NCBI RefSeq assembly: GCF_030643805.1 | Contig: NZ_CP094656.1 | Location: forward strand, 806,001-870,000 | Reading direction: 5' to 3' | DNA length: 64,000 nt | DNA from: Alkalihalobacillus sp. AL-G | GTDB lineage: Bacteria > Bacillota > Bacilli > Bacillales > Fictibacillaceae | Notes under the pieces: generated by a model | The model's database searches: none | What the model saw: the letters and a program-made list of their open reading frames with translations, nothing else | What the model was told of the DNA's origin: nothing | In this document: positions 37,847-64,000 of the stretch, piece after piece | Layout of the letters: each line of letters starts with the position of its first letter | Numbering within the stretch: the first letter of the stretch is position 1 | Made by a program: the position numbers and the translations under genes

Positions 37847-37851
37847 GGCTG

Positions 37852-37984: not shown

Positions 37985-38006
37985 AATATCCGGAAGGTGA
38001 TACTTA

Positions 38007-38975: not shown

Positions 38976-38999
38976 GCCGTGTGGGCAGGAGGGGAAACG

Positions 39000-40132: not shown

Positions 40133-40333
40133 TCGGCTGATGTATCCAATAGCCGCAAGCGTAAATAGAAGGAAATCTAGCAATCTGGTATAAAAAAAGC
40201 ATATAGTGACCGCATGAGGAAAAATATAGATATAGCGGTCGGTGACTAAAGAGAGCTTTTAGCAACCTGGGTCAAGAATTATGGTTATGCCGTACACATT
40301 TGAGCATCTTCTAAAAGCGAGAGGAGGGTTACC

Positions 40334-40843: not shown

Positions 40844-40862
40844 GGAAGGGTGTTTTTATATT

Positions 40863-41937: not shown

Positions 41938-41951
41938 GGAGCGGTTTTGCC

Positions 41952-42725: not shown

Positions 42726-42824
42726 ACTAGAGGAAAAGCGGAAGCAGCCTCGAGCACAAGGGCTCAGGAGTTAAACATTTATTTATGGAGCAAATTTTAC
42801 TAAAAAAAAAGGAGTGTCAGATAT

Positions 42825-44342: not shown

Positions 44343-44536
44343 ATTTTAACGCACATTAAGAACAATATCGGGGCTGACCCAATTGGGCGTCAGACTCCTC
44401 CGTAATTAAAACGAGTGCTAATTTGTACGGATCAGCCCATCTATGGAACTGACTCCTTACTTTTAGACCACTCATATGGAGGCTGCCTGACTTCCTTTTT
44501 GGAGCAGTCCCCTTCTAATTGAGAGGGAGTGGAAAA
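44343..44536. other. Structured spacer between aldehyde dehydrogenase and paaH genes
   Basis: About 190 bases containing imperfect inverted repeats built on GGGGCTGACCCA (44371) and GATCAGCCC (44430). It may act as a partial terminator or processing site inside the paa gene series. No small gene seen. Confidence 0.4.
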
Positions 44537-46613: not shown

Positions 46614-46636
46614 CCTTAAGGAGGAGAATGATTGAC

Positions 46637-47413
46637 ATGTCATCTATTTTATATGAAGTGAAAAATCATATTGCTTACGTCACCATTAATCGACCTGAGG
46701 TTCTTAACTGCTTTAATTTAGATACGTTAAAGCAGCTTGGTGACGTCGTTGAACAAATTCATCATAACCCTGAGGTTCGTGTAGCCATTTTCACAGGGGC
46801 TGGAGATAAATCATTCAGTGCTGGAGCAGATTTGAAAGAACGAAAATCGTTGACCGAGCATGAGGTACGAAGAAACGTGACAAAGATACGCGAGGTGTTC
46901 ACTGCTGTTGATAAGCTTCCGCAGCCAACGATCGCAGCGGTGAACGGTTATGCGTTTGGCGGAGGCTTCGAGCTTGCACTTTCATGTGATTTCCGAATTG
47001 CTGTAGAGGGTGCGAAAATGGGACTGACGGAGCTAGGCTGGGCAATCATCCCTGGGGCAGGTGGCACACAACGCCTTCCGAGATTGATTGGACAAGCTAA
47101 AGCGATGGAACTCATTCTTACCGCTAAAAAACTAAGCTCAGAGGAAGCATTAGGTTATGGAATTGTAAACGAAGTCGTTTCTGGTGACAGTTTGATTCAA
47201 ACGGCTGAACAATGGGCGGAAAGAATGCTTCAAAATGGACCGATTGCACTTAAGCAAGCGAAATATGCAATCAAACAAGGAATGAATGTTGACCTTGAGA
47301 CAGGTCTTAACCTTGAAGCAAAAGCCTATGAGGTAACGATTCCGACAAAGGATCGCGTAGAAGCACTTGTCGCTTTCGGTGAAAAACGTCCACCGCAATT
47401 TAAAGGAGAATAA
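46637..47413 (+). CDS. Enoyl-CoA hydratase
   Basis: 258 residues from ATG 46637 with AAGGAGGAG upstream; ATG 46628 sits too close to the ribosome binding site. Crotonase fold with FSAGADLKERK and YAFGGGFELALSCDFR, and both catalytic Glu positions (LTELGWAIIPGAGG, AMELILTA). Third crotonase of the cluster; together with the 41161 gene it covers the hydratase steps of the pathway. Which does which cannot be told from sequence. Confidence 0.85.
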   Translation: MSSILYEVKNHIAYVTINRPEVLNCFNLDTLKQLGDVVEQIHHNPEVRVAIFTGAGDKSFSAGADLKERKSLTEHEVRRNVTKIREVFTAVDKLPQPTIAAVNGYAFGGGFELALSCDFRIAVEGAKMGLTELGWAIIPGAGGTQRLPRLIGQAKAMELILTAKKLSSEEALGYGIVNEVVSGDSLIQTAEQWAERMLQNGPIALKQAKYAIKQGMNVDLETGLNLEAKAYEVTIPTKDRVEALVAFGEKRPPQFKGE

Positions 47414-47538
47414 ACACTTCGAAATCGCTTGAGACGAGATCGACATCCTTTTTGCGGTTCAACGGCTTTAACCTTGGGCACGATTATAGTATGATGATGT
47501 AATAATTTTAATTGGAGGTTTAAAAGGCCCGGAGGCTT

Positions 47539-47564
47539 ACAGGATGCTAGTCAGTTCAACGTTG
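47539..47564. repeat. 26-base direct repeat, copy B (partner at 37852)
   Basis: Matches 37852-37877 at 24 of 26 positions. In this copy the ATG within ACAGGATG opens a short Phe-rich frame; in copy A the corresponding ATG is followed at once by TGA. Confidence 0.65.
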
Positions 47565-47621
47565 ATACAAGATTACTTCGGCTCTTTTCCTCCTCCTTTT
47601 GAACATACATTTGCATTTTGA
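47544..47621 (+). CDS. Candidate 25-residue Phe-rich leader peptide upstream of paaX
   Basis: ATG 47544 with GGAGG at 47531-47535 (8-base spacing) opens a 25-codon frame ending TGA 47619-47621, 26 bases before the paaX start. The C-terminal part, DYFGSFPPPFEHTFAF, has five Phe and one Tyr in 16 residues. That composition and its place before the regulator of an aromatic pathway suggest a leader peptide, but no clear attenuator hairpin was seen and the frame may be chance. Confidence 0.35.
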   Translation: MLVSSTLIQDYFGSFPPPFEHTFAF

Positions 47622-47647
47622 GATTGAATCGGAAAAGGATGAGCAAC

Positions 47648-48544
47648 ATGGAAAATAGTTTGAACACACGGTCAATGATTTTTACATTATACGGCGATTA
47701 TATCCGTCATTACGGAAACGATATATGGATTGGCAGCTTAATTCGGCTGCTGAAGGAATTCGGGCATAATGAACAATCTGTTCGAGCGGCAATTTCAAGA
47801 ATGAACAAACAGGGCTGGGTAACCGCTGAGCGAAAAGGGAACAAAAGCTACTATCAATTGACGAAACAAGGTGTCAAGCGGATGGAAGAAGCCGCAGACC
47901 GGATTTTTAAATTTCAACCTGTCTCATGGGATGGAAAGTGGCGGATGTTTACGTACACCATTCCTGAAGAACAACGAAATATCCGGGATGAACTGAGGAA
48001 AGAGCTTGTTTGGAGTGGATTTGGACTTCTTTCGAATAGCTTTTGGATATCCCCAAACAATCAGGAAGTACAGATTGAGCAAATGATTGAAAAGTACGAT
48101 ATTCGGGAGTTTGTACACTTTTTTGCATCCGAGTATAAAGGGCCACATTCGAGCAGGAAACTTGTAGATGAGTGTTGGGACCTTAACGATATCAACGATC
48201 GATATGATGATTTTATTAAAACGTATAGCCAAAAGTATGTAATTGACAAACATAAAATCGAAAAAAGTGAAATGACTGATGGGGAATGCTTTGTTGAGCG
48301 AACGAAGCTTGTCCATGAATACCGGAAGTTTCTGTTCGTCGACCCTGGTCTTCCACAAGAGCTGTTGCCTGCAAAATGGCTCGGTGACCATGCTGCAAGC
48401 TTGTTTAGTGAATATTATAAAGCACTTGCTCAGCCTGCAAGCCGATTTTTTGAGGATGTATTCAGTGAAGGAAATGAAGTCAAAAATAAAGATAAGAAGT
48501 ATGATGTGTTGAATCACCCGTTGATGATCGATCCGAACCAATGA
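47648..48544 (+). CDS. paaX: PaaX-family transcriptional regulator
   Basis: 298 residues from ATG 47648, 8-9 bases after AAAAGGA. The N-terminal winged helix (SMIFTLYGDYIRHYGNDIWIG, SVRAAISRMNKQGWVTAERKG) and the PaaX-type central and C-terminal domains (WRMFTYTIPEEQRNIRDEL, HEYRKFLFVDPGLPQELLP) are clear. PaaX represses phenylacetate genes and is released by phenylacetyl-CoA. It follows the paa enzymes and is the best candidate to bind CGTTAAATAAACGT in front of paaA and in front of the thioesterase operon. That assignment is inference. Confidence 0.92.
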   Translation: MENSLNTRSMIFTLYGDYIRHYGNDIWIGSLIRLLKEFGHNEQSVRAAISRMNKQGWVTAERKGNKSYYQLTKQGVKRMEEAADRIFKFQPVSWDGKWRMFTYTIPEEQRNIRDELRKELVWSGFGLLSNSFWISPNNQEVQIEQMIEKYDIREFVHFFASEYKGPHSSRKLVDECWDLNDINDRYDDFIKTYSQKYVIDKHKIEKSEMTDGECFVERTKLVHEYRKFLFVDPGLPQELLPAKWLGDHAASLFSEYYKALAQPASRFFEDVFSEGNEVKNKDKKYDVLNHPLMIDPNQ

Positions 48545-50431: not shown

Positions 50432-51457
50432 GTGAAAAGGCTTTGGAAATCACTAGTTGGAGTTTCGTTGGCAAGCGTATTAGTTCTCGGAGGCTGTGGA
50501 TCTACAGAGGATACTCAAGGTGGTGGAGAAGGTGGCGATGATACTGAAAAAACAGTAACGGTTGCGATCAACCAATTTGTAGAACATCCATCACTAGATG
50601 CAGCAACGGAAGGATTTAAGAAGGCACTAGCAGAGAATGGCTTTACAGAAGGTGAAAACCTTGAATACGTTATCGATAACGCTCAGGCTGATATGAACAA
50701 CATTCATACGATCGCCAACAAACATGTATCGGATGAAGTCGATTTGATATTTGCCAATGCAACACCAAGTGCACAGGCGAGTGTCCAGGCTGTAAAGAAA
50801 GCTAATGCAGAAATTCCAGTTCTTTTCACATCAGTAACAGATCCGGTTGGAGCCGAATTGATTGAAGCGATGGATCAACCAGGCGAATGGGTTACTGGTA
50901 CGAGTGATACCCACCCGGAAGCAATACCAAATACGATCAAATTTATCGCAGAACAAACCGATGCGAAAACAGTAGGACTTATTTATAATCCTGGCGAACA
51001 AAATTCCGTTGCACAGGTTGAAATCGTTAAAAAAGCAATGGAAGGAACAGGTTTGAAAGCTGCGGAAGCAAGTGTTGCGACAACTGCTGACGTTAAACAA
51101 GCGGCAGAATCATTAGTCGATGAAGCGGACGTATTATACATCATCACGGACAACACCGTCGTGTCTGCATTAGAATCAGTCATTAAAGTAGCCCAAGATG
51201 AAGATATTCCGATGTTTGCTGGAGAGCTTGATTCAGTTAATCGTGGTGCGATGGCAGCATACGGCTTCGATTACGCTGACCTAGGCTACGAAACTGGTCT
51301 AATGGCAGCTGCAATTTTAAAAGGGGAAAAGAAACCATCTGATTTTGAAGCGCAATACCCTCAAAACCTGAAGCTTGTGATCAATAAGACAGCAGCAGAG
51401 GAAATGGGAGTCGAAATCAAATCAGAATGGGATGACATGGCAGAATACATCGAATAG
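50432..51457 (+). CDS. ABC transporter substrate-binding lipoprotein, TrpX-like
   Basis: 341 residues from GTG 50432, with AAGGGGG upstream. Lipobox VLGGC (Cys about residue 22), a Gly/Asp/Glu linker, then the COG2984 fold (QFVEHPSLDAATEGFKKAL, NIHTIANKHVSDEVDLIFANATPSAQA, LFTSVTDPVGAELIEA, AAYGFDYADLGYETGLMAA). Members of this family include the tryptophan/tyrosine-type TrpX proteins. Followed by its permease and ATPase; in this window a role in phenylalanine or other aromatic uptake is attractive but unproven. Confidence 0.87.
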   Translation: MKRLWKSLVGVSLASVLVLGGCGSTEDTQGGGEGGDDTEKTVTVAINQFVEHPSLDAATEGFKKALAENGFTEGENLEYVIDNAQADMNNIHTIANKHVSDEVDLIFANATPSAQASVQAVKKANAEIPVLFTSVTDPVGAELIEAMDQPGEWVTGTSDTHPEAIPNTIKFIAEQTDAKTVGLIYNPGEQNSVAQVEIVKKAMEGTGLKAAEASVATTADVKQAAESLVDEADVLYIITDNTVVSALESVIKVAQDEDIPMFAGELDSVNRGAMAAYGFDYADLGYETGLMAAAILKGEKKPSDFEAQYPQNLKLVINKTAAEEMGVEIKSEWDDMAEYIE

Positions 51458-51519
51458 CAAACCGCTAGAGGAGAAAGGTATGCTCTGATTCAATCAAATA
51501 TTAGGAAGGAGCAGGTAAC

Positions 51520-52551
51520 ATGTTCTCAATTTTGTTCCCGGCTGTTGAATCGGGTATCATCTACGCGATCATGGCGCTCGGTGTTTACCTCTCCTTTCGT
51601 ATTCTTGATTTCCCCGACTTAACCGTTGATGGTAGCTTTGTCACCGGTGCTGGTGTTGCTGCCATTATGCTTGTAAACGGACAATCACCTGTGTTGGCGA
51701 CGTTAGCTGGAATGGGTGCAGGGTTTATTGCAGGCTGCATCACAGGGATTTTGCATACGAAAGGAAAAGTTAATCCATTACTTGCCGGGATTCTCATGAT
51801 GATTGCACTTTATTCCATTAATCTTCGAATTATGGATGATCGGCCAAACATCCCATTACTTGGGCAAGATACTCTTTTCTCAATGTTTCGTTCTTTCTGG
51901 GAAGGCTTCGGGATTGATAAGACACTAAATTCAGTGTTTACAGGTATTGGGCTCGATCCATCTACTTGGTCCATCTTATTCTTAATGATTCTCGTTACAT
52001 TTGCGATTAAATTTTTCACCGATTGGTTTTTGCGAACGGAAATTGGATTGGCATTGCGGGCGACAGGTGATAACAAACAGATGATCCGTAGTTTTTCTGC
52101 AGATACGAATAAGCTGACGGTTCTCGGCCTGGGTGTTTCCAATGCATTTGTAGCTTTATCAGGGGCGCTGATTGCGCAATACAATTCATTTGCAGATATC
52201 GGAATGGGAATCGGGATGATAATTATCGGTCTTGCCTCTGTCATTATAGGTGAAGCTTTATTCGGAATCAAAACGATCATGCGGACGACCCTTGCAGTCA
52301 TAGGAGGAGCAATCATTTACCGACTCGTCATCGGTTTGGCGCTTGAGGTTGGTTTTAAGGCAGGAGATTTGAAGCTCATTACAGCGATTCTTGTGGTCAT
52401 TGCTCTTGTCCTTCCGAAGATACTTGAAAACCAAAAGGAACGGACACGTAAAAAGCGAAAGCGGGCAGAATTAGAAAAGATGTACGCAGTCGGCCCTGAA
52501 AAGGAGGGTGAAGACGTTGCTTCAACTAAATCAGATTCACAAAGTGTTTAA
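51520..52551 (+). CDS. ABC transporter permease, TrpY-like
   Basis: 343 residues. About eight TM helices of the branched-chain-amino-acid/LivH-like permease fold (GIIYAIMALGVYLSFRILDFPDLTVDGSF, GLALRATGDNKQMIRSFSADTNKLTVLGLGVSNAF), with a charged cytoplasmic C-terminus (KERTRKKRKRAELEKM). Partner of the binding protein upstream and the ATPase downstream; its end overlaps the ATPase gene by about 35 bases. Confidence 0.9.
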   Translation: MFSILFPAVESGIIYAIMALGVYLSFRILDFPDLTVDGSFVTGAGVAAIMLVNGQSPVLATLAGMGAGFIAGCITGILHTKGKVNPLLAGILMMIALYSINLRIMDDRPNIPLLGQDTLFSMFRSFWEGFGIDKTLNSVFTGIGLDPSTWSILFLMILVTFAIKFFTDWFLRTEIGLALRATGDNKQMIRSFSADTNKLTVLGLGVSNAFVALSGALIAQYNSFADIGMGIGMIIIGLASVIIGEALFGIKTIMRTTLAVIGGAIIYRLVIGLALEVGFKAGDLKLITAILVVIALVLPKILENQKERTRKKRKRAELEKMYAVGPEKEGEDVASTKSDSQSV

Positions 52552-53311
52552 CGAAGGAACGTTGGATGAGAAAATTGCCCTTTCTCATATCAACTATTCG
52601 CTCGAACCGGGTGATTTCGTTACGGTAATCGGAAGTAATGGTGCAGGTAAATCAACGTTAATGAACGTGGTCGCCGGTGTTCTGAGTCCGGATGTTGGAG
52701 ATGTGGTCATTGAAGGAAGAACGGTTACCAATCTCCCTGAACATAAGCGTGCTGCCTATATCGGCCGGGTGTTTCAAAATCCTTTGGCAGGTACAGCACC
52801 ATCGATGACGATTGAAGAAAATATGGCGATGGCATATGCACGAAATAAAAACAGGGGCCTGCGAGCAGGAGTGACGAAAAAGCTTAGGATGTTTTTCAAG
52901 GAGTCCTTAGAAACGTTGCATCTTGGGCTCGAGGATCGCTTGAATGCTAAGGTAGGGATGCTTTCAGGTGGTGAACGTCAAGCACTTTCACTTCTGATGG
53001 CTACGTTTACCGAACCGAAAATTTTACTGTTAGATGAACATACGGCTGCCCTTGACCCATCTAGAGCAGAACTTATTACAACTTTGACAAAACAAATCGT
53101 GCAGCAGCATCAATTGACAACGCTGATGGTAACCCACAACATGCAACAGGCATTAGATTTGGGCAATCGATTGATCATGATGGATAAAGGACAAATTATC
53201 CTGGAAGTCAGTGGAACTGAGAAACAAGAACTGACAATCGAGCAATTACTCCAAGAATTTCAGCGTATACGCGGCTCGAAAATGACGAGTGACCGCGCAT
53301 TGTTAAGTTAG
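52517..53311 (+). CDS. ABC transporter ATPase, TrpZ-like
   Basis: 264 residues from TTG 52517, nine bases after AAGGAGGG (GTG 52508 abuts the site). Walker A (GSNGAGKST), signature (LSGGERQALSLLMA), Walker B (ILLLDEHTAALDP) and H-loop (VTHN) are intact. It energises the TrpXYZ-like importer and its gene overlaps that of the permease. A terminator follows at 53318. Confidence 0.92.
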   Translation: MLQLNQIHKVFNEGTLDEKIALSHINYSLEPGDFVTVIGSNGAGKSTLMNVVAGVLSPDVGDVVIEGRTVTNLPEHKRAAYIGRVFQNPLAGTAPSMTIEENMAMAYARNKNRGLRAGVTKKLRMFFKESLETLHLGLEDRLNAKVGMLSGGERQALSLLMATFTEPKILLLDEHTAALDPSRAELITTLTKQIVQQHQLTTLMVTHNMQQALDLGNRLIMMDKGQIILEVSGTEKQELTIEQLLQEFQRIRGSKMTSDRALLS

Positions 53312-53477: not shown

Positions 53478-54827
53478 ATGGCACAGCATGAGCAATGGGG
53501 TTCAAAATTATCATTCATTTTAGCAGCAGCAGGTTCTGCAATCGGTCTAGGGGCTATTTGGAAGTTCCCATATGTAGCGGGATCAAGCGGAGGAGGAGCC
53601 TTTTTCCTCGTATTCTTACTTTTTACATTTCTAGTAGGTTTTCCGTTATTGTTAGCAGAATTTGTTATCGGGCGAAGTTCACAGAAGGAAGCTATATCGG
53701 CTTATCGTTCAATTGCACCCCGTTGGACATTTATCGGTCGAATGGGTGTGTTTACTGCTTTCATACTACTATCATTCTATAGTGTCATCGGTGGTTGGAT
53801 TCTACTTTATTTTGGGGCAACGCTTACCGGTTACACGATGGGCGTGGAAAATTATGAGCAATTGTTTGGAACGATCATTTCCAATCCATGGACAGCGGTC
53901 GGCGCTCAGCTCGCTTTCATGTTCCTGACGATCATCGTAGTTGCGAAAGGCGTCAAGGATGGTATTGAAAAAGCATCGAAGTGGATGATGCCTGCTTTAT
54001 TCATTCTTTTTATCGTATTGATTGCACGTTCACTGACACTCGATGGGGCGATGGAAGGGGTTAAATACTTCCTGCAACCAGACTTCAGCAGGTTGACTTC
54101 TGAAGGTGTCCTTTTCGCACTTGGACAATCCTTCTTCTCGTTAAGCCTTGGGGTATCCGTCATGGTAACATACAGCTCCTATTTATCGAAAAAGGAAAGC
54201 CTTGTTAAGTCTGCAACCTCTATCGTCATGATGAACATATTTATTACGATCCTAGCAGGTCTTGCAATATTCCCAGCGGTATTTTCATTTGGATTTGAAC
54301 CCGAACAAGGGCCTGGACTGCTTTTTGTGGTGCTCCCTTCTGTGTTTGCCCAAATGCCTGGCGGCGTTATCTTTTTCGCAATCTTCCTGGCCCTTTTCTT
54401 GTTCGCAACATTGACATCTGCGTTCTCGATGCTAGAAATCATTGTCGCTTCAGTTGCGAAGGACTCTGGAAAAGAAGCACGTTCGAAAGCTTCATGGTGG
54501 ATTGGACTCGCGATTTTCGTAGTAGGTATTCCAGCTGCCTTATCGTTTGGAATTTTAGGCGATTACAAGTGGATGGACAAGACGATCTTCGATTTGATGG
54601 ATTACCTTGTCAGTAATATTATGCTTCCAGTCGGAGCATTGTTGATTTCAATCTTTGTTTCCTGGAGGATGCCTCGTAAAACATTGGTGGAAGAGCTTAC
54701 GGATGGTAGCAGCTTCGGTAAAAAATTACTAGCCTTGTGGGTGTTGATTTTAAAATTTGTGGTACCTATTGTCATCATCATTGTGTTCCTCGATGCATTA
54801 GGTGTACTCGACATGTTGTTTGGCTAA
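53478..54827 (+). CDS. Sodium-dependent transporter, NSS (SNF) family
   Basis: 449 residues, about 11-12 TM helices. N-terminal NSS signature WGSKLSFILAAAGSAIGLGAIWKFPYVAGSSGGGAFF (here quoted in parts: GSAIGLGAIWKFPY, SSGGGAFF) forms the sodium and substrate site in TM1; LGQSFFSLSLGVSVMVTYSSYL is TM6. Bacterial NSS members such as TnaT and Tyt1 import tryptophan or tyrosine with sodium. Together with the TrpXYZ-like system next door it suggests aromatic amino acid uptake. GGAGG precedes the ATG; terminator at 54844. Confidence 0.9.
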   Translation: MAQHEQWGSKLSFILAAAGSAIGLGAIWKFPYVAGSSGGGAFFLVFLLFTFLVGFPLLLAEFVIGRSSQKEAISAYRSIAPRWTFIGRMGVFTAFILLSFYSVIGGWILLYFGATLTGYTMGVENYEQLFGTIISNPWTAVGAQLAFMFLTIIVVAKGVKDGIEKASKWMMPALFILFIVLIARSLTLDGAMEGVKYFLQPDFSRLTSEGVLFALGQSFFSLSLGVSVMVTYSSYLSKKESLVKSATSIVMMNIFITILAGLAIFPAVFSFGFEPEQGPGLLFVVLPSVFAQMPGGVIFFAIFLALFLFATLTSAFSMLEIIVASVAKDSGKEARSKASWWIGLAIFVVGIPAALSFGILGDYKWMDKTIFDLMDYLVSNIMLPVGALLISIFVSWRMPRKTLVEELTDGSSFGKKLLALWVLILKFVVPIVIIIVFLDALGVLDMLFG

Positions 54828-56577: not shown

Positions 56578-56622
56578 TTGATTTTCATTTAACAAAATGT
56601 TATTATATCGTTAAATAAACGT
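56578..56622 (+). promoter_or_regulatory. Promoter and operator of the thioesterase-phenylalanine dehydrogenase operon
   Basis: TTGATT (56578-56583), 17-base spacer, TATTAT (56601-56606), then two bases later CGTTAAATAAACGT (56609-56622), the same 14-mer with the same spacing as at paaA. Flanks also agree (TTAT before, ATAT after). This ties the operon to the paa regulon. Confidence 0.8.
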
Positions 56623-56686
56623 CATATGTATTATCGATAATATTATAGATATACGTCAATCAGTGGATGCAAAGGAGGCGCTATTT

Positions 56687-57082
56687 TTGAAGCCAGGCAT
56701 GGAAGTTGGACAAAAGGCTGCCATTACAGCCCAAGTTACACCAGATATGTATGCACAATTCGAAGGAAACCTTGTTCATCCAGCTTATTCCACCGTATCG
56801 ATGGTTTATCATATGGAGTGGGCTGCACGCCAGATTATTCTTCCGTATCTAGAAGACCATGAAGAAGGAATCGGCGGAGGAGTTACAGCCAAGCACTTGA
56901 ATCCTACTCCAGCAGGTAGCACCGTAACGATTACTGCAACCCTTCGTGAAGTAAAAGGAAAAGCGGTTATTTGCGACTTGGAAGTCCATAATGAGAAGGA
57001 AATGATCGGTGAAGGAGAAGTGACACAATACATTCTTCCTAAAGAAATGATTGAACAGAAAATAAAATCGATGAAGGTTTGA
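56687..57082 (+). CDS. FlK-like hot-dog thioesterase
   Basis: 131 residues from TTG 56687, seven bases after AAAGGAGGC (a GTG at 56663 is upstream of the ribosome binding site). Hot-dog fold resembling fluoroacetyl-CoA thioesterase-type proteins: VHPAYSTVSMVYHMEWAARQII, GGVTAKHLNPTPAGSTVTITATL, ICDLEVHNEKEMIGEGEVTQYIL. In this operon it probably hydrolyses an aryl-acyl-CoA such as phenylacetyl-CoA, or a dead-end paa intermediate, to free CoA, the task PaaI or PaaY does elsewhere. First gene after the paaA-like operator. Confidence 0.8.
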   Translation: MKPGMEVGQKAAITAQVTPDMYAQFEGNLVHPAYSTVSMVYHMEWAARQIILPYLEDHEEGIGGGVTAKHLNPTPAGSTVTITATLREVKGKAVICDLEVHNEKEMIGEGEVTQYILPKEMIEQKIKSMKV

Positions 57083-57098
57083 TTTTTTTAAATGAAAA

Positions 57099-57112
57099 TG
57101 TAAGCGGTTACG
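57099..57112 (+). promoter_or_regulatory. cre-like site before phenylalanine dehydrogenase gene
   Basis: TGTAAGCGGTTACG fits the CcpA consensus TGWNANCGNTNWCA except for the last base. In the 74-base gap between the thioesterase and phenylalanine dehydrogenase genes it could act as a roadblock under glucose. Confidence 0.55.
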
Positions 57113-57156
57113 AGTCTTAAAGTTTAGAAGATTATTAGAATTGGGGGACTTACATC

Positions 57157-58257
57157 ATGTTTGAACGTATAAATGGACACGAACAAGTTTTATTTTGTAA
57201 CGATCCGGATACAGGGTTGAAGGCGATTATCGCCATACATAATACGACTTTGGGCCCAGCGCTGGGTGGTTGTCGTATGAGACCATATGCTTCAACAGAT
57301 GAGGCAATTGAAGACGTACTCCGCCTGTCGAAAGGCATGACGTATAAATGTGCCGCTGCAGATGTGGATTTTGGCGGAGGGAAGTCTGTCATCATAGGTG
57401 ATCCGCTCAAGGATCGTACCCCAGAATTATTCCGTGCTTTCGGTCAATTTGTAGAATCGTTGAATGGTCGTTTTTATACAGGGACTGATATGGGGACTAC
57501 CCCAGGAGATTTTGTCCATGCGTTAAAAGAGACGAATTGTATCGTCGGAGTTCCAGAAGAGTACGGCGGTAGTGGTGATTCTTCGGTTCCGACTGCACAA
57601 GGCGTTTTATACGGATTAAAGGCATCTAACAATGTTATGTATGGTTCGGATGAACTCAGCGGAAAAGTTTACTCCATACAAGGCCTCGGTAAAGTTGGTT
57701 TTAAGGTAGCCGAAAAGCTTCTTGAAGTAGGAGCGGATATTTACGTAACGGATATCAATGAAAAAGCGATTAAAAACCTTGTTCAAGTCGCTGAAGGATT
57801 AAAAGGGAACGTAAAATTCGTAGAAGGAAACGAAATCTATAGTGTTCCTGCAGATGTATTTGTTCCTTGTGCACTCGGTGGAATCATTAACGATGAAACT
57901 ATTGAACAGCTAAAGGTGAAGGCTGTCGTCGGTTCTGCGAACAATCAGCTTTTAAAGGATGAGCACGGCACCTATTTACAGCAAAAAGGTATCCTGTACG
58001 CACCAGATTATATTGTCAATGCTGGTGGACTTATTCAAGTGTCAGATGAGCTTTATAACCCGAACAAAGCCCGTGTGCTTGCGAAAACGAGAGCCATTTA
58101 CGATACACTGATGGAAATTTACCAGAATTCAAAGGCACAGTCGATTTCTACAGCGGAGGCAGCCAATCTGTTCTGCGATTCTCGAATCGAAAGCCGTAAG
58201 AAGAGAAACAGCTTCTTTAGTCACAAAAAGCGTCAGAAATGGGCTGTACGTAATTAA
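57157..58257 (+). CDS. pdh: Phenylalanine dehydrogenase
   Basis: 366 residues. Glu/Leu/Phe/Val dehydrogenase superfamily with catalytic lysines in [18 protein letters not shown] and a Rossmann motif ([15 protein letters not shown]). The distinguishing stretches match Bacillus-type phenylalanine dehydrogenase rather than leucine dehydrogenase: [20 protein letters not shown] (leucine enzymes have GGSGNPSPVTAYGV), [17 protein letters not shown], and the C-terminal end [13 protein letters not shown]. It deaminates L-phenylalanine to phenylpyruvate with NAD. The operon then supplies a 2-oxoacid dehydrogenase complex. I recognise this from memory of the family; an alignment would settle it. Confidence 0.87.
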
Positions 58258-58268
58258 GGAGGAATCTT

Positions 58269-59336
58269 ATGGAAACGCAATTCCCAACAAAACAAATTTT
58301 AAATGAAGATGGAATCGTCGTTAATTCAGAATTTGAAAATGAGATGACGGAATCGTTAACGAAAGAACTCTATACGAAAATGCTGCGAGCTCGTATGTTC
58401 GACCGAAAAGGGGTTAACTTGCAACGCCAAGGAAGAATCGGGACCTATGTACCTTTTGAGGGTCAAGAAGCGGCGCAAATTGGAAGCGCTCTCGTTTTAG
58501 AAGAAGGCGATTGGATGTTTCCGACATACCGTGACCATGCTGCAACATTGACGTACGGACACTCTCTTCGCAATCTCTTTTTATATTGGAAGGGATATCC
58601 GATGGGTTGTGTGCCACCTGAAGGGAAAAACATCTTTCCACCAGCAGTGCCGATAGCCTCACAGCTATTACATGCGACCGGTGCCGCTTGGGCAGAGAAA
58701 ATGAAGGGGACAGACCGCGGTTCAATCGTATACTTCGGAGATGGCGCAACCTCAGAGGGAGACTTCCATGAGGGTCTGAACTTTGCAAGTGTTTTTGATG
58801 TACCAGTTGTTTTCTTTAACCAGAACAACGGATTTGCCATTTCTGTTCCGATCGAAAAGCAAATGAAATCGAAAACAATCGCTCAAAAAGCGGTTGGTTA
58901 TGACATTCCTGGAATACGACTTGATGGGAATGACGTGTTTGCGGTTTATTTTGAAACAAGACTAGCGATGGATAATGCACGTAAGGGGAACGGTCCGACG
59001 TTGATTGAGGCGGTTACCTATCGTTATGGTGCACATACAACTGCAGATGATCCGAGCAAATATCGTGATCAATCGGAAGCGAAGCGTCGCCGCGAGCAAA
59101 CCGACCCGATCGTGAGACTTGAGCGTTATATGCAGCACAAAGGCATTTGGGAAGACTCCTGGAAAACAAAAGTAGAAGAAGAAATCACTGCTGAAATCGA
59201 AAAAGCAGTTGAAGAGATGGAAGCATTCGGTGCAGCTGATTCTAAAGATATGTTCACTCACGTTTTTGCGAAGCCGACGTGGACAATCCAGGAGCAGTTG
59301 GATGAGTTCAATGGCCGGGCAAAGGAGGAAGTGTAG
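58269..59336 (+). CDS. 2-oxoacid dehydrogenase complex E1 alpha, probably phenylpyruvate-specific
   Basis: 355 residues. Thiamine-diphosphate motif GDGATSEGDFHEGLNFASV...VVFFNQNN, substrate-channel block YVPFEGQEAAQIGSALVLEEGDWMFPTYRDHAATL, and the phosphorylation-loop region YRYGAHTTADDPSKYRDQSE. It belongs to the pyruvate/branched-chain E1 alpha group. Starts 11 bases after phenylalanine dehydrogenase with AAGGAGG. The location makes phenylpyruvate (product phenylacetyl-CoA) the likely substrate, but sequence alone does not exclude pyruvate or branched 2-oxoacids. Confidence 0.88.
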   Translation: METQFPTKQILNEDGIVVNSEFENEMTESLTKELYTKMLRARMFDRKGVNLQRQGRIGTYVPFEGQEAAQIGSALVLEEGDWMFPTYRDHAATLTYGHSLRNLFLYWKGYPMGCVPPEGKNIFPPAVPIASQLLHATGAAWAEKMKGTDRGSIVYFGDGATSEGDFHEGLNFASVFDVPVVFFNQNNGFAISVPIEKQMKSKTIAQKAVGYDIPGIRLDGNDVFAVYFETRLAMDNARKGNGPTLIEAVTYRYGAHTTADDPSKYRDQSEAKRRREQTDPIVRLERYMQHKGIWEDSWKTKVEEEITAEIEKAVEEMEAFGAADSKDMFTHVFAKPTWTIQEQLDEFNGRAKEEV

Positions 59337-60335
59337 ATGAGTACAGCAGTTAAAACGCAAAAACTTACGATGGTTCAAGCAATCACCGATGGCATGAGAA
59401 CAATGATGCGAGAACATGATGATGTCATTGTGCTTGGAGAAGATGTCGGTCGAAACGGCGGAGTATTCCGGGCAACGGACGGGCTGATCGAGGAGTTCAG
59501 CGACAAACGGATCATTGATACACCTCTTGCTGAATCAGGAATCATCGGAACATCGATCGGTCTTGCAATGAACGGTTTTCGTCCGATCGCAGAAATGCAG
59601 TTCCTTGGATTCATTTATCCTGCCTACAATCAAATCATGACGCATGCCTCTCGAATTCGGTCACGTACACTCGGCCATTTCACAGTGCCTTTAGTGATTC
59701 GGGCACCATACGGAGCAGGAGTTCGTGCACCTGAAATTCACTCAGATAGTGTAGAGGCTCTTTTTACCCATATGCCTGGCATCAAGGTAGTCGTTCCGTC
59801 CAATGCCTATGACGCAAAAGGACTGTTGATTGCGAGTATAGAAGACCCTGATCCGGTTATTTTTCTTGAGCCGATGCGCTGTTATCGTTCGCATAAACTC
59901 GAAATTCCTGAAGAGAAATATACGGTTGAAATTGGAAAAGGAGCGCGCCTTCAAGAAGGGGAAGACATAACGTTGATCGCTTGGGGCGCAATGGTCGATG
60001 TGGTTAAAAAAGCAGCTAAAGAAGTTGAAGAGAGTGAAGGTATTACATGTGATGTCCTTGACTTGAGAACCTTGTACCCATTTGACCGCGAATTAATAAC
60101 AGAATCGGTTAAGAAGACAGGACGTGCTGTCATCGTACACGAAGCGCCAGGAACAGGTGGAGTTGGAAACGATGTCGTATCACTGATAAATGATACGTCC
60201 TTCCTTTATTTGCGCTCACCGATTAAGCGCGTAACAGGACATGATACGCCAGTTCCAATGTTTGCGATTGAGGATGATTACCTGCCAAATTCAGACCGTG
60301 TAAAACAAGCAATAATCGATACAGTACGGTTTTAA
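59337..60335 (+). CDS. 2-oxoacid dehydrogenase complex E1 beta
   Basis: 332 residues. Transketolase-like pyrimidine domain (VIVLGEDVGRNGGVFRATDGL, DTPLAESGIIGTSIGLAMNG, AEMQFLGFIYPAYNQIMTHA) and C-terminal domain (LITESVKKTGRAVIVHEAP, GNDVVSLI). Begins directly after the E1 alpha stop codon, with AAAGGAGGAAG inside the end of that gene, so the two are translated together to form the alpha2-beta2 E1 that decarboxylates the 2-oxoacid and acylates E2. Confidence 0.9.
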   Translation: MSTAVKTQKLTMVQAITDGMRTMMREHDDVIVLGEDVGRNGGVFRATDGLIEEFSDKRIIDTPLAESGIIGTSIGLAMNGFRPIAEMQFLGFIYPAYNQIMTHASRIRSRTLGHFTVPLVIRAPYGAGVRAPEIHSDSVEALFTHMPGIKVVVPSNAYDAKGLLIASIEDPDPVIFLEPMRCYRSHKLEIPEEKYTVEIGKGARLQEGEDITLIAWGAMVDVVKKAAKEVEESEGITCDVLDLRTLYPFDRELITESVKKTGRAVIVHEAPGTGGVGNDVVSLINDTSFLYLRSPIKRVTGHDTPVPMFAIEDDYLPNSDRVKQAIIDTVRF

Positions 60336-60350
60336 GATAGGAGGAGTATG

Positions 60351-61616
60351 ATGATCGAGGTTAAGCTTCATGATATTGGCGAAGGAATTACAGAGGGGGA
60401 GATCATCCATTTTCACGTTTCTCCTGGAGACACTGTTAAGATTGACCAGCCACTCGTTGAGGTTCAAACAGATAAAGTTACTGCAGAGCTCCCATCTCCA
60501 GTAGCAGGTAAAGTAAAAGAAATCAAAGCATCAGAAGGGGACGTTGTAACGGTCGGCACTACGCTTGTTTTAATCGAAAAAGAAGGAAGCGAGCCTTCTA
60601 ACGCACCACCGAAAGAAGAGCCGGCGAAAGAAAAGGTAGTTGCGGAAACCTCTTCATCTATTTCATCAGCGGCAGTAAGCTCGTCTGACCCGATGACCCG
60701 GTTAACGAAAAGAGTGCTGGCTGCACCTTATACTCGAAAAATTGCTCGGGAGAAAAATGTTGATATCGAACTGGTTAACGGAAGTGGGCCGTCTGGAAGA
60801 GTAACGGAAGAAGATGTTTTCCGTTTCGTAAATAGCGGGCAGCAACAACAAAGTACGGATCCGATTGAAACTTCGGCTTCCCCAGTGCACACGGTTAAGC
60901 CGACAATCGAAGCGAAGGAAATTCCATTTAAGGGCAGAAGAAAACAAATTGCCCAAAAGATGACGCAGTCACTTTACACAATCCCGCACGTTACACACTT
61001 CGATGAGGTTGACCTAACCAACCTCCTAGAATTGAAAAAGTCATTAAAACAAGCGGATCCAGATGGAACTAAAGGGATGAACGTATCTCTTGCTGCATTC
61101 TTCGTAAAAGCGATACAGCTCTCATTAAGAGACTACCCGATTTTCAATGCCAAGCTTGATGAGAAAAATGAAGTGATTCGCCTTGAAGGTGAAGTCAATA
61201 TGGGTCTGGCAACGGATGCAGATGACGGATTAATCGTACCAGTTGTAAAAAATATCGAGCAAAAGTCGATCTCTACAATTAACCGTGAAATGAAAGAAAT
61301 GATCGGAAAGGCGAAATCGAAGAAATTGAAGCCATCAGAAATGAAGGATGGTACATTTACGATCAGCAATGTTGGCCCTCTAGGCAGTACAGGTGCAACA
61401 CCGATCATCAACCATCCAGAAGTTGGGTTGATGGCGTTTCATAAAACAAAGAAAATGCCTGTTGTCATCCATGATGAGATCGTCATCCGATCGATGATGA
61501 ATGTATCAATGACGTTCGACCATCGAGTTGCAGACGGTGCAACGGCAGTCGCTTTTACGAACGGTTTTATTCACTATATCGAAAATCCAGCAGCGATGAC
61601 ATTGGAGCTGATATAA
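60351..61616 (+). CDS. 2-oxoacid dehydrogenase complex E2, dihydrolipoyl acyltransferase
   Basis: 421 residues (ATG 60351, six bases after AGGAGG; ATG 60348 gives one more residue). One N-terminal lipoyl domain with the lipoylated Lys in VQTDKVTAELPSPVAGKV (about residue 42), an Ala/Ser/Glu linker, a peripheral-subunit-binding domain (APYTRKIAREKNVDIELV, GSGPSGRVTEEDV), and the catalytic domain ending with the DHRVADGATA active site. It transfers the acyl group from lipoamide to CoA. Likely product in this setting is phenylacetyl-CoA. Lipoylation would depend on LplJ or LipA. Confidence 0.92.
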   Translation: MIEVKLHDIGEGITEGEIIHFHVSPGDTVKIDQPLVEVQTDKVTAELPSPVAGKVKEIKASEGDVVTVGTTLVLIEKEGSEPSNAPPKEEPAKEKVVAETSSSISSAAVSSSDPMTRLTKRVLAAPYTRKIAREKNVDIELVNGSGPSGRVTEEDVFRFVNSGQQQQSTDPIETSASPVHTVKPTIEAKEIPFKGRRKQIAQKMTQSLYTIPHVTHFDEVDLTNLLELKKSLKQADPDGTKGMNVSLAAFFVKAIQLSLRDYPIFNAKLDEKNEVIRLEGEVNMGLATDADDGLIVPVVKNIEQKSISTINREMKEMIGKAKSKKLKPSEMKDGTFTISNVGPLGSTGATPIINHPEVGLMAFHKTKKMPVVIHDEIVIRSMMNVSMTFDHRVADGATAVAFTNGFIHYIENPAAMTLELI

Positions 61617-61617
61617 C

Positions 61618-63084
61618 ATGGTAGTCGGTGAAGTGATTCAAGAACGAGAACTCATCATTGTCGGTGGCGGGCCAGGTGGCTACAATGCTGCGATTCGCGC
61701 AGCACAGCTCGGGGTCGAGGTTACCCTGATCGAAAAAGGTGAACTTGGCGGAATCTGTTTAAGTAAAGGCTGCATACCGTCTAAACTATCTGCACATACT
61801 GCCAGCAAACTATCAGACTATAAACATCTGCAGCAGATTGGTATTGATACGGGTGAGCCATCTTTTAACCTAGATCAGCATCGTAAATATATGGAGCAAA
61901 CCGTTTCAGCCCTACAAAAAGGGGTTGAAAGCCTCTGCAAGGCAAACAAGGTTGAAGTGATCAACGGTACCGCTTCCTTTATGACGGGCAGTCGAATCGG
62001 AGTCGAAATTGGCGACACATTTGAGATGTACAAATATGAAAAGGTCATCATTGCGTCTGGAGTGAGTTCCTCAGTTCCCGATGTGTTTAAAATGGACTCG
62101 GAATCCGATCGGATTTTCACCGCTCAAACGATTTACGAAATTGAAGAGGTACCTGAACACCTTCTCATATATGGAACGGACTACATCGCACTTGAAGCGG
62201 CAACAAGCTTCCGTGCTCTTGGGTCCAGCGTAACGATCATTATGGATGAAACAGATGGATACGGTTTTGACGCTGACATTGAGAAAGAGCTTAGTAGAGT
62301 GCTCAAGAAATCCAAGATTAAAGTAATGAAAAATAGTGTTGTAGATTCTGTAGAAGCGAATGATGAGCAAGTCTTCATTCACCTCACAAAGGGAGAAGAT
62401 GAAAAACTCTCTGTTGAAGGCACTCATCTACTCGTTTCAGCAGGCTTTACCCCGAACACGAAGGAGATCGGCATCGATGCACTTTCCATCGAAATCGATG
62501 AAAGTGGCTTTATCGTGATCAATGAACATAGTGAAACGTCGGTAAAAGGGGTTTATGCTGTCGGTGATGTTACGTTCGGTCCATCCCTTGCTGTAAAAGC
62601 AATCAAACAGGGGAAAGTTGCGGCAGAACATTGTGCTGGCCGTAAAAGCGAGCTGAATCTACGTTATATTCCGACGATCGTGCATACCGCGCCGCCAATT
62701 GCAACGGTTGGATTAACAGAGGCAGTAGCTGTTGGGGAAGGCTTTTCTGTGACAACTGGACAGTTTTCCATGTCTGGTAATGGGTATGCTGGGATCACTG
62801 GGAAAAAGGAAGGTGTCGTAAAAGTCATCAAGGATTCTGAAACCAACCTGCTACTGGGTGTCCATATGATCGGCCACGGTGCGGTAGAAATGATTACATC
62901 CGGAGTCACCGCTCTTGAGATGGCTGCTCGTGACGAGGATCTCATGTATGGATTCTTCCCACACCCCAGCTTTAACGAAGGCTGGCTTGAAGCCTTGGAA
63001 AGTCTGACAGGAGAAGCCATTCACGTAACTCCAGGTAAACAACAGAAAAAAAGCGCCGCAGAACCAGTCGGGAGCCGAGATTAA
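61618..63084 (+). CDS. 2-oxoacid dehydrogenase complex E3, dihydrolipoamide dehydrogenase
   Basis: 488 residues. FAD motif LIIVGGGPGGYNAAIRAAQLG, redox disulfide GGICLSKGCIPSK, central NAD domain (an EEVPEHLLIYGTDYIALEAA segment in which the usual GGG of the dinucleotide fold reads GTD), and C-terminal catalytic HPSFNEGWLEALE (the common pattern is HPHPTLSE, so the region is divergent). It reoxidises E2 lipoamide. The altered GxGxxG and His-Glu region make it a diverged E3; activity needs testing. It starts at the base after the E2 stop and ends the operon; terminator at 63085. Confidence 0.88.
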   Translation: MVVGEVIQERELIIVGGGPGGYNAAIRAAQLGVEVTLIEKGELGGICLSKGCIPSKLSAHTASKLSDYKHLQQIGIDTGEPSFNLDQHRKYMEQTVSALQKGVESLCKANKVEVINGTASFMTGSRIGVEIGDTFEMYKYEKVIIASGVSSSVPDVFKMDSESDRIFTAQTIYEIEEVPEHLLIYGTDYIALEAATSFRALGSSVTIIMDETDGYGFDADIEKELSRVLKKSKIKVMKNSVVDSVEANDEQVFIHLTKGEDEKLSVEGTHLLVSAGFTPNTKEIGIDALSIEIDESGFIVINEHSETSVKGVYAVGDVTFGPSLAVKAIKQGKVAAEHCAGRKSELNLRYIPTIVHTAPPIATVGLTEAVAVGEGFSVTTGQFSMSGNGYAGITGKKEGVVKVIKDSETNLLLGVHMIGHGAVEMITSGVTALEMAARDEDLMYGFFPHPSFNEGWLEALESLTGEAIHVTPGKQQKKSAAEPVGSRD

Positions 63085-63120
63085 AAACTACCACAGCATG
63101 TTGGATGCTGTGGTAGTTTT
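63085..63120 (+). terminator. Rho-independent terminator after the E3 gene
   Basis: AACTACCACAGCAT / ATGCTGTGGTAGTT perfect stem with 5-base loop and T run, right at the stop codon. Confidence 0.92.
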
Positions 63121-63190
63121 ATGGTTGGAAAAAACGTAAAATGATGCATTTTATTTATTCGTGTAATGAAAGTGTATGAAGAGCAGAAAA

Positions 63191-63474: not shown

Positions 63475-64000
63475 TTATGGGTAATAAATGACCATCAAGA
63501 GGGTGCAACGTTCATCGGTAGTATTTTCATAAATGTGCTCATAGTTGGCAGAAAAGTGAAAAGCTTCATTTTCCCGTAGTCTGTGTGTTTCTCCAGCAAC
63601 AGTCAGTGTCATCTCGCCTTCATGCACGAATAAATACTCTTCAACCCCGTCTCCGTGTGCAGAACTAGTATAGATGCAGTCAGGTTCCAGCGTAACTGAA
63701 TATGCTTCAAATCGTCTTTTCGCCTCTGTCGGAAATAAGGTACGGACTTGGTATCGACCCTCATCCTCTAATAATGGTTCCACATTATCAATCTCAACCT
63801 TCGAAAATTTTGGTTTTTCTTCCTCGACAAATGAAGAAAAAGAAACCCCAAGGCCAGATGCGACTTTCCATAAGGTGCTTACGGTCGGACTGGAAACACC
63901 TCGTTCAATTTGTCCGAGCATCGCCTTGCTCACGTCGGTTAATCGTGACATCTCTTCAAGACTTAAATTCCGTTGCCTACGTATGGTTCTTATTTTATCA
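63475..64000 (-). CDS. XRE-family regulator with C-terminal cupin domain, 5' end outside window
   Basis: At least 174 codons; the frame stays open through position 64000 (reading DKIRTIRRQRNLSLEE before the first Met at 63951), so the true start lies beyond the window. N-terminal HTH_3/XRE domain (SLEEMSRLTDVSKAMLGQIERG, PTVSTLWKVASGLGV) and a C-terminal small cupin (SAHGDGVEEYLFVHEGEMTLTVAGE, HRLRENEAFHFSANYEHIYENT). Such regulators usually respond to a small metabolite bound by the cupin, often in amino acid or polyamine metabolism. Convergent with the E3 gene; target unknown. Confidence 0.9.
   Translation of the reverse strand, partial: DKIRTIRRQRNLSLEEMSRLTDVSKAMLGQIERGVSSPTVSTLWKVASGLGVSFSSFVEEEKPKFSKVEIDNVEPLLEDEGRYQVRTLFPTEAKRRFEAYSVTLEPDCIYTSSAHGDGVEEYLFVHEGEMTLTVAGETHRLRENEAFHFSANYEHIYENTTDERCTLLMVIYYP

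What the first reader, a model, noticed from the sequence alone, without database searches (positions are those of the whole stretch)
56578..63084. Dedicated phenylalanine-to-phenylacetyl-CoA operon: thioesterase, phenylalanine dehydrogenase and a complete 2-oxoacid dehydrogenase complex
Seen: six co-directional, tightly packed genes, FlK-like thioesterase, phenylalanine dehydrogenase ([13 protein letters not shown] and RNSFFSHKK signatures), E1alpha, E1beta, E2, E3, ending in one strong terminator. Known: phenylalanine dehydrogenase makes phenylpyruvate, and 2-oxoacid dehydrogenase complexes turn 2-oxoacids into acyl-CoA. Inference: the complex converts phenylpyruvate directly to phenylacetyl-CoA, which enters the paaABCD pathway encoded 18 kb away in the same window, without free phenylacetate or PaaK. 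The usual route via phenylacetaldehyde or phenylacetate would be bypassed, saving ATP and yielding NADH. A complex specific for aromatic 2-oxoacids is little described.
Basis: partly seen in the sequence, partly recalled or inferred. Interest (0 to 1): 0.86.

Follow-up and report, generated by a model that had tools for sequence, protein, structure and literature searches.

The report
Phenylalanine-to-phenylacetyl-CoA dehydrogenase operon
A six-gene bacterial operon appears to turn the amino acid phenylalanine directly into phenylacetyl-CoA with a specialised relative of pyruvate dehydrogenase, and the same kind of complex recurs in many bacilli, often next to genes that break down aromatic rings.

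Summary
The operon is real: FlK-type thioesterase, phenylalanine dehydrogenase (PheDH), E1alpha, E1beta, E2, E3, hairpin. The genome has separate pyruvate, branched-chain and 2-oxoglutarate E1 genes. This E1 falls in its own clade near PDH. Outside one subclade (B), 41 of 43 survey loci have PheDH and 43 of 43 have PheDH, paa, hpa or homogentisate genes; 0 of 56 control E1 loci do. PaaA occurs in 72 of 72 genomes with this E1 and 76 of 326 without. PheDH keeps all 14 site residues named for a characterised PheDH. New: of 13 loci lacking PheDH outside B, 7 carry a HisC-like aminotransferase plus 4-hydroxyphenylacetate (hpa) genes and one hpa genes alone, suggesting an arylpyruvate dehydrogenase family with two forms. 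Against: NCBIfam names E1alpha PDH; 24 of 28 subclade B loci lack aromatic neighbours; PaaK is present here, and its loss is not commoner with the complex (10/72 vs 11/76). No activity is shown. PDH-like phenylpyruvate complexes are precedented in antibiotic biosynthesis; my searches found no catabolic one.

The parts
56687..57082 (+). FlK-type hot-dog acyl-CoA thioesterase (TTG start behind AAAGGAGG; mechanical ORF starts at GTG 56663)
   Evidence: Pfam PF22636 123 bits; FlK T42/E50/H76 conserved in the alignment to 3kv7 (the catalytic role of these residues is recalled); start read from sequence
57098..57112 (+). cre-like (CcpA) box, one mismatch to WTGNAANCGNWNNCW (consensus recalled)
   Evidence: exact consensus upstream of 58 of 89 PheDH genes (majority in 13 of 32 protein clusters) vs 3 of 23 LeuDH and 0 of 26 PDH E1alpha genes
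57157..58257 (+). phenylalanine dehydrogenase
   Evidence: Pfam ELFV domains; 14 of 14 substrate-site residues named for B. badius PheDH (PMC8543943 passages) identical at offset 14; G109 in 90 of 90 PheDH-type vs Ala in 24 of 24 LeuDH-type proteins, types set by best match
58269..59336 (+). E1 alpha of the proposed arylpyruvate dehydrogenase; motif TYVPFE at residues 59-64
   Evidence: Pfam E1_dh; clade; motif
59337..60335 (+). E1 beta
   Evidence: Pfam; H103, A127, A131 differ from PDH and BKD
60348..61616 (+). E2 acyltransferase: lipoyl domain (TDK, K43), E3-binding domain, catalytic domain (DHRVADG)
   Evidence: Pfam; motifs read
61618..63084 (+). E3 dihydrolipoyl dehydrogenase (CLSKGC disulfide)
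   Evidence: TIGR01350 415.9 bits over cut-off 408.8; motif
63083..63124 (+). strong hairpin, probable terminator
   Evidence: -25.2 kcal/mol, z -7.08; not listed by the scan
63475..63951 (-). XRE-cupin regulator, downstream neighbour also in some related loci; role unknown
50432..53311 (+). TrpX-like ABC importer (substrate binding, permease, ATPase), candidate aromatic amino-acid uptake
   Evidence: TrpX model 251 bits, under its cut-off 390; Pfam; a similar binding-protein gene in 16 of 58 and 15 of 71 related loci
53478..54827 (+). SNF-family Na+-dependent transporter, candidate uptake
36464..48544 (+). paa cluster: PaaK, A, B, C, D, hydratases, aldehyde dehydrogenase, 3-hydroxyacyl-CoA dehydrogenase, thiolase, PaaX; would receive phenylacetyl-CoA
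   Evidence: PaaK/A/B/C/D/X over NCBIfam cut-offs; ORFs; the other names by eye

Best explanation
The operon encodes an arylpyruvate (mainly phenylpyruvate) dehydrogenase complex joined to its amino-acid dehydrogenase. PheDH oxidatively deaminates phenylalanine to phenylpyruvate (NADH made). E1 decarboxylates phenylpyruvate on thiamine diphosphate and passes the phenylacetyl group to the lipoyl arm of E2. E2 transfers it to CoA, and E3 reoxidises the lipoyl group, giving a second NADH. Phenylacetyl-CoA enters the PaaABCD ring-epoxidation pathway encoded nearby, without ATP or PaaK. The thioesterase probably acts as a relief valve, as PaaI does elsewhere, or releases a free arylacetate for other routes; PaaK can re-activate phenylacetate. 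The plan parallels the branched-chain operon of the same genome (Ptb, LeuDH, Buk, E3, E1, E2). Shown here: gene identity, order, clade, conserved context and residue patterns. Inferred: substrate, product, flux and the thioesterase's role.
For: Separate PDH, BKD and OGDH E1 genes in the genome. E1alpha+E1beta clade of 66 rows, SH-aLRT 99, distinct from the PDH and BKD rows. Context: PheDH in 47 of 58 named loci and in 41 of 43 survey loci outside subclade B; PheDH, paa, hpa or homogentisate genes in 55 of 58 and 43 of 43; in 0 of 56 control E1 loci; LeuDH in 23 of 23 BKD controls. PaaA in 72 of 72 genomes with this E1 vs 76 of 326 without; genera 25 of 25 vs 42 of 121. PheDH site residues 14 of 14 as in B. 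badius PheDH. E1alpha residue 59 is Thr in every aligned aryl-clade sequence with a letter there and Phe in 25 of 25 PDH and 23 of 23 BKD; E1beta A131 replaces the Thr that lines the catalytic-His nest in G. stearothermophilus PDH. Own genome: no IOR alpha or HPPD over cut-off; the TPP-enzyme N-domain proteins over cut-off are two acetolactate synthases and MenD.
Against: No biochemical data. E1alpha passes the NCBIfam model for PDH E1 alpha (467.3 vs cut-off 411.35). In subclade B 24 of 28 loci have no aromatic marker within about 8 kb, though those genomes all carry PaaA. PaaK is present, and the operon's thioesterase would undo the ATP saving. PaaK loss is not enriched with the complex (10/72 vs 11/76). 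The co-occurrence is not corrected for shared ancestry beyond genus counting. A KorA-like oxidoreductase and an aromatic amino-acid hydroxylase are also in the genome.
Confidence: 0.85

Rival explanations
1. The complex is a broad arylpyruvate dehydrogenase whose main or equal role is 4-hydroxyphenylpyruvate from tyrosine. FlK would release 4-hydroxyphenylacetate for the hpa operon located elsewhere in this genome.
For: Own genome has an HpaI-HpaG-HpaE-HpaB-HpaD operon, HpaI and HpaB over NCBIfam cut-offs. Related complexes sit with hpa genes: L059 E1a-E1b-E2-E3-HpaI-HpaE-HpaB-HpaD-HpaC-HpaG and L081 aminotransferase-FlK-E1a-E1b-E2 beside HpaF/G/C/E. HPPD not found over cut-off.
Against: The window operon has a PheDH and lies near paa; its E1alpha motif is TYVPFE, not the TYVQYE of 6 of the 8 PheDH-free hpa loci. 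Genomes of one genus (f31 g65) have FlK in the operon but no HpaB match at E<=1e-50.
Confidence: 0.3
2. It is a second pyruvate dehydrogenase; the PheDH and paa neighbours are incidental or reflect co-regulation only.
For: E1alpha over the PDH model cut-off; PDH rows form the neighbouring branch.
Against: A complete PDH operon exists elsewhere. Active-site motif differs (FYAP[VTM][AS] vs TY[AV]PFE). PheDH/paa/hpa neighbours recur in the aryl clade and occur in 0 of 25 PDH controls.
Confidence: 0.06
3. It is a branched-chain 2-oxoacid dehydrogenase paired with a leucine/valine dehydrogenase.
For: The BKD operon has the same logic. The best-scoring solved structures of the dehydrogenase are LeuDHs; the only PheDH-named chains matched were 1bxg, 1bw9, 1c1d and 1c1x (Rhodococcus enzymes, recalled).
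Against: Own BKD operon with LeuDH is elsewhere. The dehydrogenase has G109, not Ala; E1 lies outside the BKD clade.
Confidence: 0.04
4. The complex works in parallel with, and is minor to, other phenylalanine routes: the KorA-like 2-oxoacid:acceptor oxidoreductase, or hydroxylation of Phe to Tyr.
For: TIGR03710 protein and aromatic amino-acid hydroxylase present in the genome.
Against: Neither is in this gene cluster; the IOR alpha cut-off is not reached; it would not explain the PheDH-E1-paa linkage.
Confidence: 0.12

Closest known systems
PglB/PglC PDH-like complex of pristinamycin phenylglycine biosynthesis (PMC7089894, passages seen)
   Same: Described as converting phenylpyruvate to phenylacetyl-CoA with PDH-type alpha and beta subunits; a thioesterase gene (pglD) in the same operon
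   Different: Biosynthetic, in Streptomyces; the passages give an aminotransferase (PglE), no PheDH and no E2/E3 in the operon; phenylacetyl-CoA goes to phenylglycine. Sequences were not compared here.
PDH-like complex of ripostatin biosynthesis (one passage of PMC5490192 citing Fu 2017)
   Same: PDH-like complex decarboxylates phenylpyruvate and keeps the acyl group
   Different: Product is a phenylacetyl carrier-protein thioester; not catabolic. Fu 2017 itself was not seen; sequences not compared.
Branched-chain 2-oxoacid dehydrogenase operon of the same genome (L140)
   Same: Amino-acid dehydrogenase gene with its cognate E1-E2-E3 complex
   Different: LeuDH, phosphate butyryltransferase and butyrate kinase; different E1 clade and motif
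Pyruvate dehydrogenase of Gram-positive bacteria (TIGR03181; 1W85, 3DUF)
   Same: Neighbouring branch; best solved-structure matches of E1alpha and E1beta; same E1/E2/E3 plan
   Different: 40% E1alpha and 51% E1beta identity to own PDH; Phe59 to Thr and other active-site changes
Bacterial phenylacetate pathway with PaaK (PMC9493321, passages seen)
   Same: Same phenylacetyl-CoA intermediate and PaaABC epoxidase; PaaI thioesterase as safety valve
   Different: There PaaK is the entry enzyme; 'phenylpyruvate' and 'dehydrogenase complex' have no hits in that review's main text

Membership tests
2-oxoacid dehydrogenase multienzyme complex | E1 alpha and beta, lipoyl-bearing E2 with E3-binding and catalytic domains, and E3 | tested here: met
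   Pfam domains of all four proteins; TDK, DHRxxDG and CxxxxC motifs read
2-oxoacid dehydrogenase multienzyme complex | assembly and NAD+/CoA-dependent 2-oxoacid oxidation | not testable with these tools
   needs purified proteins
Pyruvate dehydrogenase | curated model for PDH E1 alpha | tested here: met
   TIGR03181 467.3 bits vs 411.35; E1beta and E2 reach no PDH cut-off
Pyruvate dehydrogenase | falls in the clade of the house-keeping PDH E1 | tested here: not met
   separate 66-row clade, SH-aLRT 99
Pyruvate dehydrogenase | PDH active-site motif FYAP[VTM][AS] and E1beta Thr near the catalytic His | tested here: not met
   TYVPFE and A131
Branched-chain 2-oxoacid dehydrogenase | linked LeuDH, BKD clade, F[VL][IV]SCQ motif | tested here: not met
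Phenylalanine dehydrogenase | substrate-site residues of a characterised PheDH | tested here: met
   14 of 14 residues listed for B. badius PheDH; Gly109 vs Ala in LeuDH-type proteins
Phenylalanine dehydrogenase | preference for phenylalanine over leucine | not testable with these tools
   kinetics needed; NCBIfam gives no model over cut-off for this protein
FlK-type thioesterase | FlK domain with Thr/Glu/His triad | tested here: met
   PF22636; T42, E50, H76 aligned (roles recalled)
FlK-type thioesterase | fluoroacetyl-CoA selectivity | not tested
   no claim made
PglB/PglC phenylpyruvate complex | homology closer to PglB/C than to PDH | not tested
   PglB/C sequences were not fetched

The most novel reading that the evidence does not exclude
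A previously unnamed family of catabolic arylpyruvate dehydrogenase complexes, now matched by a PDH model, occurs across Bacilli (19 families in the survey, 14 of them with members outside the weakly supported subclade B). It has split into a phenylpyruvate form linked to PheDH and paa and a 4-hydroxyphenylpyruvate form linked to an aminotransferase and hpa. E1alpha Phe59 to Thr opens the pocket and residues 62-63 (PF vs QY) sense the para-hydroxyl. It gives an ATP-free, PaaK-free entry to ring cleavage.
Probability: 0.5. Interest if true: 0.78.

Novelty: new variant of a known kind. Interest (0 to 1): 0.68.

Why it matters
If true, a widespread enzyme complex is being named pyruvate dehydrogenase by automatic models. 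Phenylalanine breakdown then has an entry to the phenylacetyl-CoA pathway that avoids free phenylacetaldehyde, phenylacetate and PaaK, saves ATP and yields NADH. It supplies a third substrate class, with clear residue predictions, for understanding how 2-oxoacid dehydrogenase E1 enzymes choose substrates, and a possible biocatalyst for arylacetyl-CoA.

Tried and rejected
Second PDH or BKD: judged unlikely on own-genome paralogs, tree and controls.

PaaK loss as proof of a PaaK bypass: tried, and not supported as an association. PaaK (TIGR02155, E<=1e-110) is unmatched in 10 of 72 genomes with the complex and in 11 of 76 PaaA genomes without it; one of the 11 is 79% complete. One of the ten (G184) has a partial PaaK-like ORF at the locus; G256, counted as having PaaK, has only a partial match.

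FlK as purely a 4-HPA-branch enzyme: weakened, because a genus with FlK in the operon (f31 g65) has no HpaB match at E<=1e-50.

E1alpha 62-63 as a clean substrate code: only partly. Of 8 PheDH-free loci with hpa genes, 6 have TYVQYE, L033 has TYVPYE and L059, with the fullest hpa operon, has TYVPFA. The '10-row hpa group' also holds L035 and L060, placed there by tree position; no hpa gene passed my thresholds in them. Most of the six are related to each other, so this is few independent events.

The aminotransferase beside the hpa-linked complexes passes the NCBIfam HisC model (L052 361.6, L081 348.2, L073 324.2; cut-off 276.55), so its aromatic role is inferred.

Structure prediction was not run: single subunits would not show the shared E1 pocket. 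That E1alpha 59 aligns with T. thermophilus Phe66 follows from the alignment; that Phe66 lines the substrate pocket is recalled, not read. The G. stearothermophilus nest residues were seen in passages.

Paper searches for an aromatic 2-oxoacid or phenylpyruvate dehydrogenase complex in catabolism (open-licence PMC papers only, listings capped) showed none that I recognised; subscription papers are not covered.

Rows dropped: the tree uses 111 of 181 E1alpha/E1beta pairs (88% identity filter); L039, L065, L066, L079 and L106 had no usable pair. Some stretches are short because contigs end (controls L165, L180, L191; survey L069, L070, L106, L108, L119, L124, L132). The loci are seeded on the window protein; the survey is the less biased set.
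Full report
What is there. The window lies at 806001-870000 of a 4.16 Mb single-contig genome. Six co-directional genes run from 56687 (or 56663) to 63084: a FlK-type thioesterase, PheDH, E1alpha, E1beta, E2 and E3. From PheDH to E3 the gaps are 11, 0, 12 and 1 bases; FlK and PheDH are 74 bases apart. A hairpin of -25.2 kcal/mol follows E3. Upstream lie a TrpX-like ABC importer (251 bits, under its cut-off of 390) and a sodium symporter of the SNF family; further upstream lies a paa cluster with PaaK, PaaA, PaaB, PaaC, PaaD and PaaX over their NCBIfam cut-offs.

The dehydrogenase is PheDH-like. A paper on Bacillus badius PheDH (PMC8543943, passages seen) lists four catalytic residues (K78, K90, D125, N276) and ten hydrophobic pocket residues (L50, G51, G52, M75, F86, G123, V144, L306, V309, L313). 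All 14 are identical in the window protein at a constant offset of 14. G109 (B. badius G123) is Gly in 90 of 90 PheDH-type proteins (the window and 89 from the fetched loci) and Ala in 24 of 24 LeuDH-type proteins; the types were set by best match to the window PheDH or the genome's own LeuDH. That LeuDH is elsewhere, in the BKD operon. No NCBIfam model reaches its cut-off for the window PheDH.

The complex is an extra one. The genome has four E1_dh proteins: PDH, BKD, OGDH and this one. In a tree of concatenated E1alpha and E1beta (111 rows, quick IQ-TREE, LG+G4, SH-aLRT only, midpoint root) this E1 falls in a 66-row clade (99), next to a 24-row branch holding PDH (90) and apart from BKD. Long branches were flagged (L193, L192, L172, L185, L108, L184, L182); of these only L108 is in the aryl clade.

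Context test. Two sets of loci were used. Set 1 is 58 named loci found with the window's E1alpha. Set 2 is 71 loci, one from each other genome among the 72 of 398 Bacilli genomes with a match at E<=1e-120. PheDH lies in 47 of 58 and 41 of 71 loci; PaaA/B/C/D/K/X in 39 of 58 and 30 of 71; hpa genes in 10 of 58 and 4 of 71; PheDH, paa, hpa or homogentisate genes in 55 of 58 and 47 of 71. The 24 survey loci with none of these are all in one subclade, here called B (28 loci, 4 with a marker); outside B it is 43 of 43, with PheDH in 41. As control I took every full-length E1 paralog, other than OGDH and this E1, that one search listed for 24 genomes: 25 PDH, 23 BKD, 8 other. None of the 56 has any such marker, while 23 of 23 BKD loci have LeuDH. 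Thus the aryl operon follows the BKD operon's plan (phosphate butyryltransferase, LeuDH, butyrate kinase, E3, E1, E2) with an aromatic amino-acid dehydrogenase in place of LeuDH.

Co-occurrence. PaaA (TIGR02156, E<=1e-50) is in 72 of 72 genomes with this E1 and 76 of 326 without; by genus, 25 of 25 versus 42 of 121, Fisher p 1.8e-10. Subclade B genomes are among the 72, so their complexes may serve the same pathway from a distance. Shared ancestry above genus is not removed.

A second flavour. Outside B, 13 loci lack PheDH (11 of 58 in set 1, 2 of 43 in set 2). Seven carry a HisC-like aminotransferase and hpa genes (L033, L034, L036, L038, L043, L052, L081), L059 has hpa genes only, L035 and L066 the aminotransferase only, L044 and L088 paa genes, and L060 none of these. 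In L059 (Virgibacillus oceani) E1alpha-E1beta-E2-E3 is followed by HpaI, HpaE, HpaB, HpaD, HpaC and HpaG; HpaI, HpaE, HpaB and HpaD are over NCBIfam cut-offs, HpaC and the cut HpaG are not. In L081 the order is aminotransferase, FlK, E1alpha, E1beta, E2, beside HpaF, HpaG, HpaC- and HpaE-like genes. L033 and L052 also have an alpha/beta hydrolase. HpaB needs free 4-hydroxyphenylacetate (established knowledge), so a thioesterase or hydrolase makes sense there. The aminotransferase passes the HisC model, so its aromatic role is inferred from context. L073 joins FlK-PheDH-E1-E2 to HPPD (over cut-off), a HisC-like aminotransferase, a FAH-family protein and a homogentisate-dioxygenase-like protein (Pfam HgmA_N 53 bits; no NCBIfam model). 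L135 (in B) has the aminotransferase with E1-E2, paaABCD and paaK.

Active site. E1alpha residue 59 is Thr in PheDH-linked (84 of 84 with a letter), hpa-group (10 of 10) and subclade B (28 of 28) sequences, and Phe in 25 of 25 PDH and 23 of 23 BKD. The motif at 59-64 is TY[AV]PFE in 75 of 85 PheDH-linked rows, TYVQYE in 8 of 10 hpa-group rows (6 of the 8 with hpa genes seen), FYAP[VTM][AS] in PDH and F[VL][IV]SCQ in BKD; subclade B has TYAPF[ES]. E1beta H103, A127 and A131 are also typical of the clade, with Gly at 131 in B. A131 aligns with T124beta of G. stearothermophilus PDH, one of the residues around H128beta, which contacts pyruvate in the crystal (PMC2663715, passages; mapping). These patterns fit a changed pocket but do not prove the substrate.

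Other routes in this genome. No IOR alpha and no HPPD reached its cut-off. TPP-enzyme N-domain proteins over cut-off are two acetolactate synthases and MenD. An aromatic amino-acid hydroxylase and a KorA-like oxidoreductase are present. An hpa operon lies at about 1.553-1.559 Mb; my reference set recognised no arylpyruvate-converting enzyme in the 19 kb around it, so the window's complex might also feed it.

PaaK. The window has PaaK. Ten of 72 genomes with the complex have no PaaK match at E<=1e-110, but neither do 11 of 76 PaaA genomes without it. Bypass of PaaK is therefore a property of the proposed chemistry, not shown by gene loss.

Regulation. A cre-like box with one mismatch lies between FlK and PheDH. 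The exact consensus occurs upstream of 58 of 89 PheDH genes (majority in 13 of 32 protein clusters) against 3 of 23 LeuDH and 0 of 26 PDH E1alpha genes, which suggests carbon catabolite repression in many, not all, lineages.

Known relatives. PglB/PglC in Streptomyces is described as a PDH-like complex making phenylacetyl-CoA from phenylpyruvate (PMC7089894, passages); a PDH-like complex does the equivalent step in ripostatin biosynthesis (one passage of PMC5490192). An Exiguobacterium paper that describes its paa cluster has no hit for 'pyruvate dehydrogenase' (PMC9416434, passages). My searches showed no description of the catabolic complex. I rate it a new variant of a known kind.

Noticed in passing
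window 63189-63370: Three and a half tandem copies of a 52-bp unit holding the palindrome GGTACGAATAGACGCTATTCGTACC lie just after the operon's hairpin. Function unknown.
   Followed up: partly
L095, L101, L112-L119, L121-L123, L125, L126, L128-L134, L136, L137 (subclade B): 24 E1alpha-E1beta loci of the same clade without an aromatic marker nearby, although each of these genomes carries PaaA. Their substrate is open.
   Followed up: partly
G000 about 1.553-1.559 Mb (L199:4877-11390): GntR-type regulator followed by an HpaI-HpaG-HpaE-HpaB-HpaD operon; the enzyme that would supply 4-hydroxyphenylacetate was not recognised nearby.
   Followed up: partly
L076, L077: Two PheDH genes flank FlK before the E1 genes (order PheDH-FlK-PheDH-E1alpha). 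The reason for the duplication is unknown.
   Followed up: no
L102 and L110 (genomes G184, G256): paaK gives only partial matches beside an otherwise PaaABCD- and PheDH-E1-bearing cluster; sequencing error not excluded.
   Followed up: no
window 63475-63951: XRE-cupin regulator on the opposite strand, also found next to the operon in several Pseudalkalibacillus and Fictibacillus loci; could be the local regulator.
   Followed up: no
window 16491-33175: Sugar-acid type catabolic cluster: two ABC sugar importers, LacI- and RpiR-like regulators, dehydratases, a sugar-acid kinase-like gene and an aldolase (by eye). Unrelated to the finding.
   Followed up: no
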